A DNA stretch of 64,000 bases from assembly GCF_000422305.1 (NCBI RefSeq), contig NZ_KE383816.1, forward strand, positions 360,566 to 424,565, written 5' to 3'. Below, one piece after another: positions 47,254-53,456 of the stretch (position 1 is the first letter of the stretch; each line of letters begins with the position of its first letter). A program made the position numbers and the translations under genes. The DNA is from Luteimonas mephitis DSM 12574 (GTDB lineage Bacteria; Pseudomonadota; Gammaproteobacteria; Xanthomonadales; Xanthomonadaceae). Under the pieces are notes generated by a model. It searched no databases and was not told the origin of the DNA. It saw only the letters and a list, made by a program, of their open reading frames with translations.

Positions 47254-48068
47254 GCCTCCGCGAAGAACAGGCGTCGCAGCGCGGCGCCGGGGTCGGTTTC
47301 GCGCATGAACGCCTCGCCGACCAGGAACGCATCGACGCCGGCTGCACGCATCCGGCGCACGTCGCCAGGGTCGAGGATGCCGCTTTCGGTCACCAGCCGA
47401 CGGTCGCCCGGCACCGCGCCTTTCAGCGCCAGCGTGGTGTCGAGCGAGACCTCGAACGTGCGCAGGTTGCGGTTGTTGATGCCGAGCAGCGGTGCGGGCA
47501 CTTGCAGCGCGCGCTCCAGTTCGGCCAGGTCGTGCACTTCCACCAGCACGTCCATGTCCAGGTCCAGCGCCTGCGCCGACAGCGCGGCCAGGCGCGAGTC
47601 GTCGAGCGCGGCGGCGATCAGCAGGATACAGTCCGCGCCCAGCGCGCGCGCCTCGACCACCTGGTAGGCATCGACGATGAAATCCTTGCGCAGCACCGGC
47701 AGCGCGCAGGCCGCGCGCGCCTGCTGCAGGTGGGCATCGGCGCCGTGGAAGAAGTCGACGTCGGTCAGCACCGACAGGCAGGCCGCACCGCCGGCTTCGT
47801 AGCTGCGGGCAATCGCGGCCGGGTCGAAGTCGGCGCGGATCACGCCCTTCGACGGGCTGGCCTTCTTGATCTCGGCGATGACCGCCGGGCCGCCCGCCGC
47901 GATCTTCGCCTCGAGTGCGGCGGCGAATCCGCGCGCCGGCGACGCGTCCGCCGCGCGCGCCGACAGCTCGCGCAGCGGCAGGCGCGCGGCGCGTTGCGCG
48001 ATTTCCTCGTGCTTGCGCCGCAGGATCGCCTGCAGCACGTCCGGGCGCGCGCCCGCTGGCTGTGTCAT
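47250..48068 (-). CDS. trpC: Indole-3-glycerol-phosphate synthase
   Basis: A 272-residue TIM barrel: [15 protein letters not shown] (catalytic lysine), [36 protein letters not shown] and VTESGI. It closes the indole ring of tryptophan. The start at 48068 overlaps the stop of the Mur-ligase-type gene (ATGA). In relatives trpC directly follows trpD; here three cyanophycin-type genes lie between them. Confidence 0.97.
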
Positions 48069-50377
48069 TCCGCTTCTTCCTGGTCCTTCGGCAGCGGCAT
48101 GCCCGGCCGCCAATCGGAGGCGCGCAGTGTATCGAGCAACGCGACGACTTTGGCGCGGGCGCCGAGTTCGTGCACCGGCAGGACCACCAGGTCGCCGTCG
48201 CGCGCCCATTCCAGCGGACGCCGCGCGGCTTCGACCTCGTCGAGCCTGGTTTCGATCGCGGCGTCGGCGATGCCCGCGTCACGCAGCGCCGCGCGCATGA
48301 TCCGCGCGATGTCGCCGGACGCACGCCCGCGTTCATAGCCGCCGATGTCCTTGAGCACCACCAGTTCTGGCGCGAAACCGGCCGCGGTGGCGGCGACCGC
48401 GCGCAGGTCGGCGTCTTCGCGGTTGCCGGCGTGCCCGAGGATCACCGCAAGCCGGCCGTCGCGCCGGCCGGCGCCGACCGCGTGCAGCAGGCCCAGCAGT
48501 CCGTCCGGGTTGTGCGCGTAATCGACGTACACCTCGAGCGCACCGAAGCGCCAGCGCTGCAGGCGACCGGGGTTGTCGCCGTGGCCGCTGCCGAAGCGGG
48601 CGAGGGTTGCGGCGATCACCGGTGGGGGGATTCCCATCGCGGCGGCCGCGAGTGCAGCGCCGGCGGCGTTGGCGACGTTGTAGCCGGCACGCCCGCCGAG
48701 CGTGAGCGGCATGGCATCGATCGCGCCGAGATCGTGCTCGACGCCGGCAAGCGACAGCCGCAGGCGTCCGTCGCGCACGCCGCAGGTGGCGCCACCGCGC
48801 GCGCGATGCGCGGCTGCCAGCGGCGCGTCGAACTCGCGCGCAAACCAGCCTTTCGGGCACGCGATCGCTTCGGCCTGCCGGCGCAGCGTTGCGTCGTCGC
48901 CGTTGAGCACCAGCAGTCCGTCGTCGCCGATCGCGCGGGCGACGGTGAGCTTGGCCGCGGCCAGGTCGTCGAGGTCGTGGATGCCGTACTCGCCGAAGTG
49001 GTCGGCGCTGACGTTGGTGACCACCGCCACGTCGGCGTGGCACACCGCCAGTCCGCGCCGCAGCATGCCGCCGCGCGCGGTTTCCAGCACCGCTGCCTGC
49101 GCCGACGGTTGCCGCAGCGCGGTGCGCGCGCCGGTGGGGCCGGAGTAGTCGCCCGACTCCAGCGCCCGGCCGTCGAGGAACACCCCGTCCGTGCAGCTGT
49201 GCGCGGTGTGCCAGCCGTGCGCACGCGCCATCGCGGCGACCAGCCGCACGGTGGTGGTCTTGCCGTTGGAACCGGTGACCAGCGCGGTGGGAATGACGTG
49301 CAGCGCGGCCCAGTCGACGTCGGCCGGATCGGGCAGCGCGCCGATCGCCCAGGTGCGACCGCCCGTGCCGGCGCCGACTGAAACTTCGTCATCGTCCGGC
49401 AGGCAAGGCAGCCCGTGCGCGGTGGCGGCGGACTGCAGCGCGACCAGCGCGGGGTTGGCTTCGGCGGCGGCCAGGGCCTGCAGCGTATGCATCGCCGACT
49501 CGATGTCCCAAGCTGCCGCGTGGCCGGGGGTATGGTAAAGCCGCGGCTCTTGCTCTCCCCTTCTCCCTCCGGGAGAAGGTGCCCGAAGGGCGGATGAGGG
49601 AAGGACGTCCCCGCTCGCCGCGTCACCCGACCCCACGCCCACAAGCGCGTCCACCGTCGACCAGACATCCGCAAGCACCTCGTCCGTGCGCGACATGACC
49701 TCGTCGTTCCAGTACCGCAGGGTCCGTACGCCCCGTGCGGCCATGAACGCATCGCGGCGCTGGTCGCGCGCAGCCTGTTCTGCCTCGTTGTGCTGGCCGC
49801 CGTCGAGTTCGATTGCCAGCCTCAGGTCGTGACAGTAGAAATCCAGCACGTACGGGCCCATCGCCTGCTGGCGCCGGAACTTCTGTCCGTGCAATCGACG
49901 ACTCCTGACATACGACCAGACGAGGTGCTCGGCGTCCGTGGCGTTGCGGCGCAAGTTGCGAATGAAGGCCTTGGCTTCGTCGTCGAAGGGGAGCTTCTTT
50001 CGGGGGCTTGCGTCGGCTGGCCGACTCCCTTCCCTCATGGGCCCCTCGGGCACCTTCTCCCCGGGGGAGAAGGAAACGGCATTCCACCACGCCCACTCGT
50101 TGACTTCGGTGGCGGCGTACAGCTGGTCCGGCGGCGCGGCGAAGGCGAGCGACACGCCGCTGCGATGCCGGCGCACGGCCACTTCGCCCTCCGGCCAGCC
50201 GAGCGCCGCGCGCGCGGCCGCGACGTTGTCGCGCCAGCGGGCCAGCGTGGCGTCGTCGAACGGCACGCCGGGTGCCGCCTCCAGCACGGCGCCGGTCCCG
50301 GCGAAATGGAAATTGCAGCCGGTCAGCCGACGCGAATCCTCGAACGGTTCGGCCGCGGGATCGAACGCAGTCGTCAT
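48065..50377 (-). CDS. Mur ligase family protein with in-frame DUF559 nuclease insertion
   Basis: A 770-residue protein. Residues 1-100 resemble the N-terminal domain of cyanophycin-synthetase neighbours; 285-770 are a Mur ligase with the ATP loop [13 protein letters not shown] (368-380), [14 protein letters not shown] and the substrate-domain motif DYAHNPDG. Residues about 101-285 are foreign to the family: they contain a complete DUF559/Vsr-like endonuclease domain (127-245; [30 protein letters not shown]) flanked by repeat-encoded Pro/Gly-rich stretches. The frame is intact across both joints. The ligase joins amino acids to a growing peptide or polymer; the gene follows cphA and overlaps trpC. 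Whether the ligase still works is unknown. Confidence 0.8.
49553..50074 (-). mobile_element. DUF559 endonuclease module with inverted terminal repeats
   Basis: A segment of about 520 bp inside the Mur ligase gene. Its ends are imperfect inverted repeats, each with an internal palindrome: CCTTCTCCC..GGGAGAAGGTGCCCGA followed by GGGC..ATGAGGGAAGG. The left copy is 49553-49604, the right copy, inverted, is 50027-50074. Between them lies a full DUF559 domain in the same strand and frame as the host gene. The repeat family is widespread in xanthomonad-type genomes, which suggests a nuclease-linked mobile palindrome. No clear target duplication could be read. Confidence 0.65.
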
Positions 50378-50389
50378 CCCGGCGGGGCC

Positions 50390-50643
50390 TGCCAATGCCA
50401 TGGGCATGAGTCGCGTTGTGCCTGAGCCGCCTCCAGGCGGTGCTGCGCGACGCCCGGCAGACTGGCCGTCTGGTCAAGTCGCGCGGCGGCGCCTGGGCGC
50501 CACTCAGGCACCACCCGAAGGGCCGGGCCTGAGGGCGCGCGCGACGGCGTCATCACTCGGTCGTGTACTGACATACATTCCCTCACTCTTCCTTGCCGCG
50601 CGCACCCTCAGGCCCGGCGCGGCAAATGCCCTTGGCATTGGCA
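50390..50643. repeat. 254-bp intergenic element with nested inverted repeats
   Basis: Outer arms of 18 bp, TGCCAATGCCATGGGCAT (50390-50407) and its near-complement at 50626-50643 (17 of 18 match). Inside are a second pair, GCCGGGCCTGAGGGCGCGCG (50522-50541) and its complement at 50599-50618 (19 of 20), and a short TGCCTGAG/CTCAGGCA pair. It fills the space between cphA and the Mur ligase gene, overlapping the first codons upstream of the latter's start. It looks like a MITE or a large folding leader. Confidence 0.6.
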
Positions 50644-50647
50644 GGCC

Positions 50648-53437
50648 CTAGTCGCTTTCCTCGCGCTCGAACACCAGCCCGCGCTCCTCGCGGACCACGC
50701 CGCCCATCGCGGCCACCGCGCGCTCGTCCAGCGTCTGTTCCAGCGACGGCAGTTCGGCCTTCGTCGCGGGCTTCGGCATCTCGCCGTCGGGCGCGAACTT
50801 GATGATCTGCTTCCACGAGCGCGTCAGCGCGTCGGCGAACACCAGGATGAGGTCGCCCGGCCTGCCCATCCGCAGCGCCGCGTCCACGGCCTGCTGCTCG
50901 TCGGGGATGATCGAGATCGCGTCCGCGGCCACGCCGAGGCCCTGCAACGCCTCGGAGATGATCCGCGGCACCTCGTCGCCGGCACGGCCGCGCAGGGCAT
51001 CGTCGCGGCGGGCGATGTAGTGGTCGAACTTGCCCGCGACCGCCCGGGCGATCGCGTGCAGGTCCTCGTCGCGACGGTCGCCGGGCCCGGCCAGCACCAC
51101 GATGCGGCGGCCGGTGACGTCGAGCCGCTGCGCCAGGTCGGCCATCATCCCGACCGCGTGCGCGTTGTGGCCGTAGTCCATCAGCACCTTGAACGGGTGC
51201 TCGGAGAACACGTTCATCCGTCCCGGCGCCTGGAAGAACGTGGTGTCGAAGGTGCGCAGGCCCTGGCGGATCGCGTCGAGCTTGATCCCCAGCGAATACG
51301 CCATCGCCGCGGCGAACATCGCGTTCTGCACGTTGTGCAGCGCGCGCCCCTCCAGCGTGGCCGGGATCAGGTGCGTCCACATCAGCGGGATGTGGCTGCC
51401 CTTGTCGTACAGCGTGATCATGTGTCCGTTGACGCCGGCTTCCAGCGCGCAGGCGCGGCCGCCGGCGCGGATGTGCTCGCGCACCAGCGAGTGCGACGGG
51501 TTCATGGTCACGTAGCAGATGGTCTTCGCGTCGGTGTAGCCGGACATGCGCAGCACGTTGGCGTCGTCGGCGTTGAGCACCGCGCAGTCGCGCGCGATCT
51601 CCACCACCACGCGCTTGATCTCGGCGAGCTGTTCCAGGGTGTCGATCCCCTTCAGGCCGAGGTGGTCGGACGCGACGTTGAGCACCGCGCCGACGTTGAT
51701 GTGGCGCACGCCCATGCCGGCGCGCAGCAGGCCGCCGCGCGCGGTTTCCAGCACCGCCATGTCGATCTGTGGATCGGACAGCACCATGCGCGCCGACACC
51801 GGGCCGGTCATGTCGCCCTCCACCGTGCGCTGGCCGTCGATGTAGACGCCGTCGGTGGTGGTCAGGCCCGGCGTGTAGCCGGCCATCTTGGTGATGTGCG
51901 CGAGCATGCGCGCGGTGGTGGTCTTGCCGTTGGTGCCGGTGACCGCGGCGATCGGCACCCGTGTCGGCGAGCCCGGCGGGAACAGCATGTCGATCACCGG
52001 CCCGGCGGCGTCGCGCGGCGTGCCTTCGCTGGGCGCGACGTGCATGCGGAAGCCGGGCGCGGCGTTGACCTCGCAGATCGCGCCGCCGATGTCCTTGTAG
52101 CTTTCGGCGATGTTGGGCGTGATGAAGTCGACGCCACCCACATCCAGCCCGATCGCGCGGACCGCGCGCACCGCCATGTCGCGATTGTCGGGGTGGATGA
52201 TGTCGGTGACGTCGGTGGCGGTACCGCCGGTGGACAGGTTGGCGGTGGAGCGCAGGTAGACGATTTCGCCGGCCGCGGGCACGGAATCGGCGTTGTAGCC
52301 GGCCCGTTCCATCATCAGCGCCGCGGGCGCGTCGAGTTCCAGCCGGGTGAGCACCTTCTCGTGGCCGACGCCGCGGCGCGGATCCTGGTTCACCATCTCC
52401 ACCAGCTGCGCGATGCTGCTGGCGCCGTCGCCGACCACGTGGCCGGGCGTGCGTTTCGTCGCCGCGACCAGCTCGCCGTTGATGACCAGCAGGCGATGGT
52501 CGTCGCCAGGCTGGAAGGTTTCGACGATCACCGAGCGCGAATGCTCGCGCGCGGCGTTGAAGGCCTCGCGGATCTCGTCGTCGCCGCTGATGTCGATGGT
52601 GATGCCGCGGCCGTGGTTGCCGTTGTAGGGCTTGAGCACCACCGAGCCGCCGAGCTTGCGCGCGGCCTTCAGCGCGTCGGTCTGGCTGGTGACCAGCATC
52701 TGCCGCGGCACCGGTAACCCGAGCGAGGCGAGGATCTTGTTGGTCTCCTCCTTGTCGCTGGCCAGTTCGACCGCGATGTGCGGCGTCTTGCCGGTCACCG
52801 TGGCCTGGATGCGCTGCTGGTACTTGCCGTGGCCGAATTGCACCAGCGACTGCTGGTTCAGTCGCAGCCACGGGATGTCGCGCTCCTCGGCGGCGCGCAC
52901 CAGCGAGGCTGTCGACGGCCCCAGCGCGCGGCGCTGCGCATAGCGGATGAAATCATCGCGCTCGGTCTCCCAGTCCCAGCCTTCGGGCAGGCTGCCGGGC
53001 GTGCGCAGGTCCTCGGGCAACAGCGAGTCGAGCAGGCGCAGCGCGAGTTCGCCGGCGCCGATGCCGATTTCCTTCTGCTCGTATTCGTAGACCACGGTGT
53101 AAACGCCGGGGCGGCCATCGGACACGCTGCGGGTCTTGCCGAAGGTGACGTCCTCGCCGGCAGCGTTCTGCAGTTCGATCGCCACGTGTTCGAGCACGTG
53201 GCCCAGCCATGTGCCTTCCCCTTCGCGCATGCGGCGGATGAACCCCCCCGGCTCGCGATACGAGCAGCCATGCTCGGCCAGGCCCGGCAGCGCAGCGAGC
53301 AGTGCGTCGACAAAGGCGGGGCCCAGTTTCGCCGTCGGCCAGGCTTCCAGCGCGCCCAGGTCGAGTTCCAGCCGGATGACGGGGAAGTGCGCGTACAGCG
53401 ACGGGCCGACGTAGACGGAACGGTTCAGGACACGCAT
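50648..53437 (-). CDS. cphA: Cyanophycin synthetase
   Basis: A 929-residue protein with the three CphA parts: N-terminal domain (to about 160), ATP-grasp (about 210-480; VLKPYNGNHGRGITIDI, EVNAAPGFRMH) and Mur-ligase-like C-terminal half (VTGTNGKTTTARML, LNVASDHLGLKGIDTL, MDYGHNAHAVG). It polymerises aspartate and arginine into multi-L-arginyl-poly-L-aspartate, a nitrogen store. The start ATG 53437 has GGGGAG seven nt upstream; GTG 53443 is in frame. It follows cphB by 20 bp and is followed by another Mur-ligase-type gene. Confidence 0.94.
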   Translation of the reverse strand: MRVLNRSVYVGPSLYAHFPVIRLELDLGALEAWPTAKLGPAFVDALLAALPGLAEHGCSYREPGGFIRRMREGEGTWLGHVLEHVAIELQNAAGEDVTFGKTRSVSDGRPGVYTVVYEYEQKEIGIGAGELALRLLDSLLPEDLRTPGSLPEGWDWETERDDFIRYAQRRALGPSTASLVRAAEERDIPWLRLNQQSLVQFGHGKYQQRIQATVTGKTPHIAVELASDKEETNKILASLGLPVPRQMLVTSQTDALKAARKLGGSVVLKPYNGNHGRGITIDISGDDEIREAFNAAREHSRSVIVETFQPGDDHRLLVINGELVAATKRTPGHVVGDGASSIAQLVEMVNQDPRRGVGHEKVLTRLELDAPAALMMERAGYNADSVPAAGEIVYLRSTANLSTGGTATDVTDIIHPDNRDMAVRAVRAIGLDVGGVDFITPNIAESYKDIGGAICEVNAAPGFRMHVAPSEGTPRDAAGPVIDMLFPPGSPTRVPIAAVTGTNGKTTTARMLAHITKMAGYTPGLTTTDGVYIDGQRTVEGDMTGPVSARMVLSDPQIDMAVLETARGGLLRAGMGVRHINVGAVLNVASDHLGLKGIDTLEQLAEIKRVVVEIARDCAVLNADDANVLRMSGYTDAKTICYVTMNPSHSLVREHIRAGGRACALEAGVNGHMITLYDKGSHIPLMWTHLIPATLEGRALHNVQNAMFAAAMAYSLGIKLDAIRQGLRTFDTTFFQAPGRMNVFSEHPFKVLMDYGHNAHAVGMMADLAQRLDVTGRRIVVLAGPGDRRDEDLHAIARAVAGKFDHYIARRDDALRGRAGDEVPRIISEALQGLGVAADAISIIPDEQQAVDAALRMGRPGDLILVFADALTRSWKQIIKFAPDGEMPKPATKAELPSLEQTLDERAVAAMGGVVREERGLVFEREESD

Positions 53438-53456
53438 CGGCACTCCCCTTCTTGTT

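What the first reader, a model, noticed from the sequence alone, without database searches (positions are those of the whole stretch)
48065..50377. DUF559 endonuclease module inserted in frame in a Mur ligase gene, bracketed by inverted repeats
Seen: the Mur ligase frame is continuous for 770 codons, but residues about 101-285 are a complete DUF559/Vsr-like nuclease domain plus Pro/Gly-rich ends. The DNA ends of that block are imperfect inverted repeats of about 48 bp (49553-49604 and 50027-50074), each with an internal palindrome. Known: RAYT transposases move REP palindromes, and DUF559 proteins are Vsr-like nucleases often found alone. Inference: a nuclease-driven counterpart of REP/RAYT, where palindromic ends code for in-frame linkers so insertions can be tolerated inside genes. 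If general, this would be a little-described mobile system.
Basis: partly seen in the sequence, partly recalled or inferred. Interest (0 to 1): 0.85.

Follow-up and report, generated by a model that had tools for sequence, protein, structure and literature searches.

The report
Nuclease gene framed by hairpin repeats
A small DNA-cutting enzyme gene, framed by inverted hairpin repeats, sits in reading frame inside another enzyme's gene, and the same kind of unit turns up inside several other conserved bacterial genes, which looks like an unrecognised kind of mobile DNA.

Summary
A DUF559 (Vsr/EDxHD-type) nuclease domain bracketed by 51-nt inverted repeats lies in frame inside a Mur ligase gene; 12 of 14 aligned orthologues lack it. 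The bracket is general: inverted repeats score >=18 at 25 of 42 DUF559 loci of relatives (controls 1 of 1853) and 36 of 60 across Pseudomonadota (8 of 1707), against 0 of 20 true Vsr loci. The repeats are of the BoxC/PIT/'intrastrand triplex' class, near which no mobility gene had been found (PMC4666352). Genomes with DUF559 tend to hold them (56 of 80 against 16 of 219). In-frame insertion recurs: among 80 loci chosen for similarity, 36 have long open frames on both sides, in MetG-, ValS-, RecG-, HrpA-, MetH-, Mur- and restriction-modification-type genes. Copies mostly group by host gene, as homing elements would. Best reading: a REPtron-like or homing unit with an unrelated nuclease, whose repeat ends code for Pro/Gly-rich linkers. 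Mobility is inferred: no transposition, target duplication or cleavage was shown, and the Mur insertion is not recent (8 carriers known).

The parts
48065..50407 (-). Mur ligase-like gene (next to a cyanophycin-synthetase-like gene) with in-frame DUF559 unit; 780 codons
50075..50407 (-). host gene, N-terminal part (to ...EWAWWNAV)
   Evidence: aligned with 13 orthologues
50023..50073 (-). upstream repeat arm (CCTTCTCCC palindrome outside, second small hairpin, G-rich tail towards the nuclease)
   Evidence: pair I1
50036..50038 (-). in-frame ATG inside the upstream arm, also present in the G004 copy; possible internal start
49655..49975 (-). DUF559 nuclease domain with conserved D, E-x-D, Q-H residues
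   Evidence: (G000:C1:410220-410540)
49559..49609 (-). downstream repeat arm, inverted copy of the upstream arm
   Evidence: pair I1
48065..49540 (-). host gene, C-terminal part with Mur_ligase_M and Mur_ligase_C domains
50648..53443 (-). neighbouring cyanophycin-synthetase-like gene (context, not part of the unit)

Best explanation
The block is a compact mobile unit: a DUF559 nuclease gene of the Vsr/EDxHD type between two inverted copies of a BoxC/PIT/triplex-type palindromic repeat. Shown here: the bracket is a common and specific feature of DUF559 genes; solo copies of the arm repeat are dispersed in the genome; units lie at sites where relatives have nothing; and units lie in frame inside several unrelated conserved genes. 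Inferred: the nuclease cuts or nicks at the folded repeat or at the unoccupied target, and repair copies the unit (homing into the same site of unoccupied alleles) or, more rarely, a repeat or the whole unit into a new site. Because the arms are open in the frame used and code for flexible Pro/Gly/Ser-rich linkers, insertion into a surface loop may leave the host enzyme working, so that units persist inside important genes without being spliced out (inferred; no protein evidence).
For: Bracket: >=18 in 25/42 loci vs 1/1853 controls, 36/60 vs 8/1707; true Vsr 0/20. Genome co-occurrence 56/80 vs 16/219, Fisher 5e-27, and within 13 families CMH odds ratio 43, p 6e-9. Unoccupied sites: Mur; enoyl-CoA hydratase/biotin carboxylase junction with gaps of 3-4 nt in four relatives against 519 nt in G000; Shinella against Sinorhizobium. 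A copy in G023 that reads, by eye, as decayed DUF559 with repeat remnants (IR score there only 14.5). In-frame units. Copies mostly group by host gene, with a second HrpA site inside the HrpA clade and an HsdR copy inside an HsdM clade. Putative catalytic residues invariant in 41 rows. Nearest solved relatives: 3hrl, E 1.2e-38, and the 'mobile intron protein' 3r3p, E 2e-4. A 2022 paper places a DUF559 gene in the EDxHD homing endonuclease family in passing (PMC9403480, passages).
Against: No transposition event, target duplication or exact strain-level empty site was found. 24 of 60 phylum loci and 17 of 42 relatives' loci lack a strong bracket, as do 7 of 12 loci from plasmid-collection records. 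18 of 80 DUF559-positive genomes have no strict palindrome and 12 of 219 DUF559-negative genomes hold >=5. The two arms of one locus are each other's best match in only 10 of 23 cases. E. coli ycjD has a repeat on one side only. One DUF559 protein, Caulobacter VsrA, is reported as a repair-type nuclease (PMC12907096, passages). DUF559 identities among Mur carriers roughly follow the hosts, so much of that distribution may be vertical.
Confidence: 0.68

Rival explanations
1. Passenger: repeats and unit are moved by another enzyme (for example a RAYT or host repair), and the DUF559 gene is cargo that happens to ride between two repeats.
For: The genome has five Y1 transposase genes; 12 of 219 DUF559-negative genomes still have >=5 such palindromes.
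Against: Two of the five Y1 genes carry GTAG repeats and none has a CCCTC-type repeat within 1.5 kb. Neighbouring DNA is rarely bracketed this way: 9 of 3560 control positions reach 18 and 1 of 3560 reaches 20, so repeats do not bracket genes at random. Putative catalytic residues are kept; co-occurrence with DUF559 is strong.
Confidence: 0.12
2. Host repair enzyme: DUF559 is a Vsr-like repair nuclease and the repeats around it are its substrates, terminators or a regulatory feature; no mobility.
For: Caulobacter VsrA acts with a cytosine methylase (PMC12907096, passages); the E. coli ycjD region is present with >=80% cover in 3362 of 5426 genomes.
Against: Units inside coding frames of unrelated genes, with empty Mur orthologues; true Vsr genes carry no bracket, 0 of 20.
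Confidence: 0.1
3. Old domain fusion: the DUF559 module in the Mur ligase was gained once, became part of the enzyme, and was lost several times.
For: Eight carriers share the site and a conserved KLPFD linker, their DUF559 domains form one clade, and identities roughly track hosts.
Against: A non-carrier (G006) falls in the Mur clade of several carriers, though with moderate support (85/87); the same kind of module is found in many other genes; repeat arms are still recognisable and match dispersed solo copies.
Confidence: 0.1

Closest known systems
REP/RAYT (REPtrons)
   Same: Nuclease gene bracketed by inverted palindromic repeats, with dispersed solo copies of the repeat; intragenic repeats are known (PMC3733652, sections read)
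   Different: RAYT is an HUH tyrosine transposase with GTAG-tagged repeats; here the enzyme is PD-(D/E)XK-like and the arms carry no GTAG. In this genome two Y1 genes with GTAG repeats exist beside the DUF559 units
BoxC / PIT / intrastrand-triplex motifs (PMC4666352)
   Same: Same repeat architecture: pyrimidine stem, purine stem, G-rich third strand (consensus CCCTCNCCCN3-6GGGNGAGGGN3GGGNGAGGG); one lies between ycjD and fabI in E. coli K-12
   Different: The paper reports intergenic repeats and no mobility gene near them; here they bracket DUF559 genes and can be coding. The window's arms have a CCTTCTCCC stem and a longer spacer
EDxHD homing endonucleases (I-Bth0305I) and other free-standing homing endonucleases
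   Same: Related nuclease by sequence profile (3r3p; its identity with I-Bth0305I is recalled); patchy distribution grouped by site
   Different: Those described are phage intron enzymes; no palindromic arms or in-frame fusion with the host protein in the passages read (PMC3943268)
Inteins with homing nuclease
   Same: In-frame nuclease in conserved genes
   Different: No splicing domain found; the insert seems to stay in the protein
Rickettsia palindromic elements (RPE)
   Same: Palindromic DNA inserted in frame in many genes
   Different: RPEs carry no enzyme gene (recalled); other sequence class (PMC3733652, sections read)

Membership tests
DUF559 (PF04480) | Match over the curated cut-off | tested here: met
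   113.3 bits against 20.6
DUF559 (PF04480) | Conserved putative catalytic residues | tested here: met
   E39, E79, D81, H85, D94 invariant and D68 nearly so in 41 rows, all present in the window copy
REP/RAYT (REPtron) | Y1/HUH tyrosine transposase in the unit | tested here: not met
   Pfam finds DUF559, no Y1_Tnp
REP/RAYT (REPtron) | GTAG-tagged palindrome | tested here: not met
   Neither arm contains GTAG (sequence); Y1 loci L191 and L192 do
REP/RAYT (REPtron) | Enzyme gene bracketed by inverted repeats; solo copies elsewhere | tested here: met
BoxC/PIT/TM repeat | Consensus CCCTCNCCCN3-6GGGNGAGGGN3GGGNGAGGG | tested here: inconclusive
   Met beside K-12 ycjD and approached by many brackets (by eye); window arms are a CCTTCTCCC variant with longer spacer
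Vsr (PF03852) | Vsr family match | tested here: not met
   No Vsr hit in the window protein at E 0.001
EDxHD homing endonuclease | Sequence kinship to I-Bth0305I | tested here: met
   3r3p E 2e-4 with the family profile; that 3r3p is I-Bth0305I is recalled
EDxHD homing endonuclease | Cleavage of the unoccupied allele and copying of the gene into it | not testable with these tools
   Needs biochemistry or crosses
Intein | Splicing domain | tested here: not met
   No intein/Hint domain listed for the 34 frames scanned (E <= 1e-5) or the window protein
RPE | Enzyme-free palindromic insert of CGTC type (RPE-4, RPE-6) | tested here: not met
   The unit carries a nuclease; arms lack stems of the CGTC type described in PMC3733652

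The most novel reading that the evidence does not exclude
Small stand-alone nucleases are a whole class of drivers of bacterial palindromic repeats: DUF559 for BoxC/PIT/triplex repeats, small GIY-YIG proteins for CGTC REPs (said to lack a transposase), and PDDEXK_3/GxxExxY proteins for GCGGATG- and CGCAGAG-type repeats, next to RAYT for GTAG REPs. The DUF559 branch has also evolved an intein-like life without splicing, living in frame inside important and restriction-modification genes through repeat-encoded linkers. This would be a new class of mobile element.
Probability: 0.45. Interest if true: 0.95.

Novelty: new variant of a known kind. Interest (0 to 1): 0.85.

Why it matters
BoxC/PIT/triplex repeats are abundant in many bacteria, and how they spread has been open: the 2015 survey saw no mobility gene near them (PMC4666352). 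A specific nuclease partner makes that question testable in one strain. Units kept in frame inside MetG-, ValS-, RecG-, HrpA- and MetH-type genes would be a mobile element that needs neither splicing nor gene disruption, and could explain odd Pro/Gly-rich inserts in annotated proteins.

Tried and rejected
Synonymous divergence first suggested that the G000 and G004 inserts were older than their host genes. Withdrawn: Mur pS lies at 0.43-0.59 for all 28 carrier pairs, near and far, which I read as codon bias, so the comparison says nothing.

The clade of five gene-interrupting copies in the 45-row tree (97/79) does not persist as one exclusive clade in the 93-row tree, where free and intragenic copies mix with at least 15 changes. 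I do not claim a single intragenic lineage.

E. coli as a source of exact empty sites failed: 3362 of 5426 genomes hold >=80% of the ycjD region; of the others I opened three: LF82 and O55:H7 show an efflux operon after sapF, not a clean excision, and 300444 matched only by a repeat copy between ypfG and tkt. Shinella gives an unoccupied site for the Sinorhizobium unit but at 76-84% identity, too far for target duplications.

The idea that each DUF559 locus has a matched private pair of arms is only weakly supported: own partner best in 10 of 23.

AlphaFold models of the domain and of the fusion were requested but never finished (jobs; collections 138, 140-142, 144, 147), so no fold comparison was made. 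Toxin B chains in the PDB profile search (E about 0.3-1) are chance hits and were ignored. One search was an empty warm-up script; one search failed part-way on a file name and was redone. In one search the gap printed for G027 (496 nt) is an artefact of a contig start (it reads as about 64 nt), and that for G047 (1186 nt) is unreliable for the reason that the carboxylase start lay elsewhere.

Full report
WHAT IS THERE. The window (G000:C1:360566-424565; genome 3.4 Mb) holds an open frame of 780 codons at 48065-50407, minus strand. It is a Mur ligase-like protein next to a cyanophycin-synthetase-like gene. DUF559 fills residues 145-251. The block is bracketed by 51-nt inverted arms, 86% complementary, scoring 33.5 where 607 control positions of the window reach at most 18.0 and 0 of 1000 Markov shuffles reach it. 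Each arm has its palindrome outside and its G-rich tail towards the nuclease. An in-frame ATG lies in the upstream arm (50036-50038); there is no stop after the domain.

EMPTY SITES IN THE MUR GENE. Of 61 genomes searched with the fused protein, 51 gave some match and 25 Mur-type loci were fetched (L022-L046). Fourteen of these were aligned over the junction: G000 and G004 carry the block, 12 have a short variable linker there. A later scan of named genomes gave six more Mur carriers: three Pseudoxanthomonas, Rudaea sp. 3F27F6 and two MAGs (Pfam for four of the six; L228 and L230 by alignment). All eight share the site and a KLPFD linker. A non-carrier (G006) falls in the Mur clade of G000, G004 and Pseudoxanthomonas (85/87, not a starred fork). 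The block is thus polymorphic but not recent.

THE BRACKET IS COMMON AND SPECIFIC. I scored the best inverted repeat between the 400-nt flanks of each DUF559 domain and slid the same geometry over neighbouring DNA. Relatives and own genome: >=18 in 25 of 42, controls 1 of 1853; >=20 in 20 of 42, controls 0 of 1853 (40 of the non-Mur hits were fetched, others, mostly on short contigs or weak, were not). Pseudomonadota: 80 of 299 genomes have DUF559 at E<=1e-12; best hit of 60 of these 80: >=18 in 36 of 60, controls 8 of 1707; >=20 in 31 of 60, controls 1 of 1707. Records of the plasmid collection: 5 of 12 opened loci. True Vsr (PF03852): 0 of 20, controls 0 of 605. The G-rich tail points to the gene in 76 of 100 strong brackets (14 of 25, 26 of 34, 36 of 41), away in 10, unclear in 14 (2 of 36 strong phylum loci and 6 of 47 strong loci were not given to it). 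Not all DUF559 genes fit: 24 of 60 and 17 of 42 have no strong bracket.

THE REPEATS. They have a pyrimidine stem, a purine stem and a third G-rich strand. This is the BoxC/PIT/intrastrand-triplex class; its E. coli consensus is CCCTCNCCCN3-6GGGNGAGGGN3GGGNGAGGG, and the authors write that they never found mobility activities near it (PMC4666352: abstract, passages, section 15 and the first part of section 20). Another genome paper counts 100 CCCTCTCCC-type palindromes in Enterobacter sp. 638 (PMC2869309, passages). In E. coli K-12 one such motif lies between ycjD (the DUF559 gene) and fabI. Over the same 299 genomes, >=2 strict palindromes occur in 56 of 80 DUF559-positive and 16 of 219 DUF559-negative genomes; within 13 families the odds ratio is 43, p 6e-9 (strata transcribed by hand). 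Eighteen DUF559-positive genomes have none, and 12 DUF559-negative ones have >=5. The window's own arm has 14 further dispersed relatives in the genome, several of them, by eye, a near-exact 46-nt unit. Of five Y1 transposase genes of the same genome, two (L191, L192) are flanked by GTAG repeats, one (L188) scores 19.0 with another repeat, and none has a CCCTC-type repeat nearby: two separate systems in one genome.

UNITS AT EMPTY JUNCTIONS. In G000 a second unit lies between enoyl-CoA hydratase and biotin carboxylase. Of 25 genomes read at this junction, G000 included (30 loci fetched of 46 genomes searched), four have gaps of 3-4 nt and three of 23-72 nt; G017, G018 and G027 have about 64 nt with what looks like a solo repeat remnant; G023 has what reads as a decayed DUF559; five hold 441-685 nt, four of these with a GxxExxY-type ORF inside a different inverted repeat (scores 25-42.5); the rest hold other sequence (one ORF confirmed as PDDEXK_3). 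In Sphingomonas a unit lies between sufB and sufC. Shinella is unoccupied where Sinorhizobium has the unit.

IN-FRAME INSERTION RECURS. In eleven loci picked for long frames, DUF559 was found inside AsnB (L107), HsdM (L110) and a gene that I take from memory to be a DUF1156-type methylase (L052; Pfam gave only DUF559), while others were read-through or free. Two of the 60 phylum loci (L107, L110) are thus shown to be gene-interrupting; the remaining ones were not all screened. A scan with the window, G004 and these three copies matched 594 stretches (limit reached) and kept the best 80; as these were chosen for similarity, 36 of 80 with >=60 open codons on both sides is no base rate. 47 of 79 have a strong bracket. 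Of the 36, 34 were scanned with Pfam: 16 have named host domains on both sides (RecG-type 1, MmeI-type 2, MetG-type 4, ValS-type 1, HsdR-type 2, MetH-type 1, HrpA-type 5), the other 18 on one side (Mur 4, HsdM 5, HsdS 2, N6/N4 methylase 2, Eco57I-type 2, FtsJ-type 1, MmeI-like methylase 2) (gene names are mine from the Pfam domains). L258 and L110 are the same HsdM case. The arms read as PLPSPSGRGAGGEG- and PSPLTPLPAGEG-like linkers; RecG is interrupted between RDKG and PHLLMMSATPIPR, with no host residue lost as far as I recall RecG. On a poorly resolved tree of 93 DUF559 domains, 40 intragenic and 52 free copies need at least 15 changes. Copies mostly group by host: all 8 Mur (93), five HrpA including one at another HrpA site (95), four HsdM with one HsdR (97), three of four MetG (93); one HsdM, one MetG, one HsdR and the two HsdS copies fall elsewhere. 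This fits homing or inheritance at a site plus occasional moves.

ENZYME. E, D, E-x-D, H and D positions are conserved in 41 rows including the window copy. The profile finds 3hrl 'Endonuclease-Like Protein' (E 1.2e-38) and 3r3p 'Mobile intron protein' (E 2e-4; recalled as I-Bth0305I) in the PDB. A 2022 paper places a DUF559 gene in the EDxHD homing endonuclease family in passing (PMC9403480, passages). Caulobacter VsrA, with DUF559, is reported as a repair-type nuclease (PMC12907096, passages).

MECHANISM. Shown: anatomy, frequency, specificity, unoccupied sites, recurrent in-frame insertion, grouping by host gene. Inferred: that the nuclease recognises the arms or the unoccupied target, and that repair copies the unit. 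A hairpin or triplex arm in single-stranded DNA could be the recognised structure. I give the mobile-unit reading 0.68.

NOVELTY. The library holds 14 papers with the word DUF559 (all listed); two of them were searched by passages, the other 12 seen as listing only. Further searches (several with only the top of the list shown) gave none that links DUF559 with palindromic repeats. Most subscription papers are not covered. The unit works like a REPtron or a homing gene but fails membership of RAYT (no Y1 enzyme, no GTAG), of Vsr and of inteins.

WIDER LEAD. Small GIY-YIG genes: bracket in 6 of 20, controls 0 of 398, mostly CGTC-REP-like repeats, and a clear case in Azospirillum lipoferum. PDDEXK_3 genes: 15 of 20, controls 0 of 556. 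CGTC REPs were reported to lack a dedicated transposase (PMC3733652: abstract, passages, sections 6, 8, 15 and the first part of 17).

Noticed in passing
L165:2568-2861 (A. lipoferum 4B) and L168-L187: Small GIY-YIG nucleases bracketed by CGTC-REP dimers or other inverted repeats: 6 of 20 sampled loci, controls 0 of 398, plus the A. lipoferum case. CGTC REPs were said to lack a dedicated transposase.
   Followed up: partly
L204, L206, L208, L209 and L327-L346: GxxExxY-type (PDDEXK_3) nuclease genes bracketed by GCGGATG- or CGCAGAG-type inverted repeats: 15 of 20 sampled loci, controls 0 of 556; four relatives carry one at the junction used by a DUF559 unit in the window's genome.
   Followed up: partly
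L162 (sufB-DUF559-sufC), L165 (sufB-GIY-YIG-sufC), L166 (solo repeat in the same gap): The same suf operon gap is occupied by different nuclease-repeat units in different Alphaproteobacteria, a possible shared insertion hotspot.
   Followed up: no
L158 and L159: Sinorhizobium DUF559 gene flanked by inverted doublets of the repeat of about 120-135 nt, nearly identical in L158, resembling REPINs.
   Followed up: partly
L191 and L192: Two of five Y1 transposase genes of the window's genome carry GTAG-type REP pairs on both sides, a second REP system in the same genome.
   Followed up: yes
L273 against L261, L262, L268, L272: HrpA-type genes carry the DUF559 unit at two different sites in related bacteria, and the domains fall in one clade: a possible move within one gene.
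   Followed up: partly
L223:1596-2317: E. coli K-12 ycjD (DUF559) has a BoxC/triplex motif between it and fabI, a possible relic of a unit; the Holder 2015 table lists a motif of the same letters at 1,351,204-1,351,239, which I take to be this one.
   Followed up: partly
L054, L056, L102: DUF559 genes run without a stop into PrpF or MurB in the same frame; perhaps translational coupling rather than insertion.
   Followed up: no
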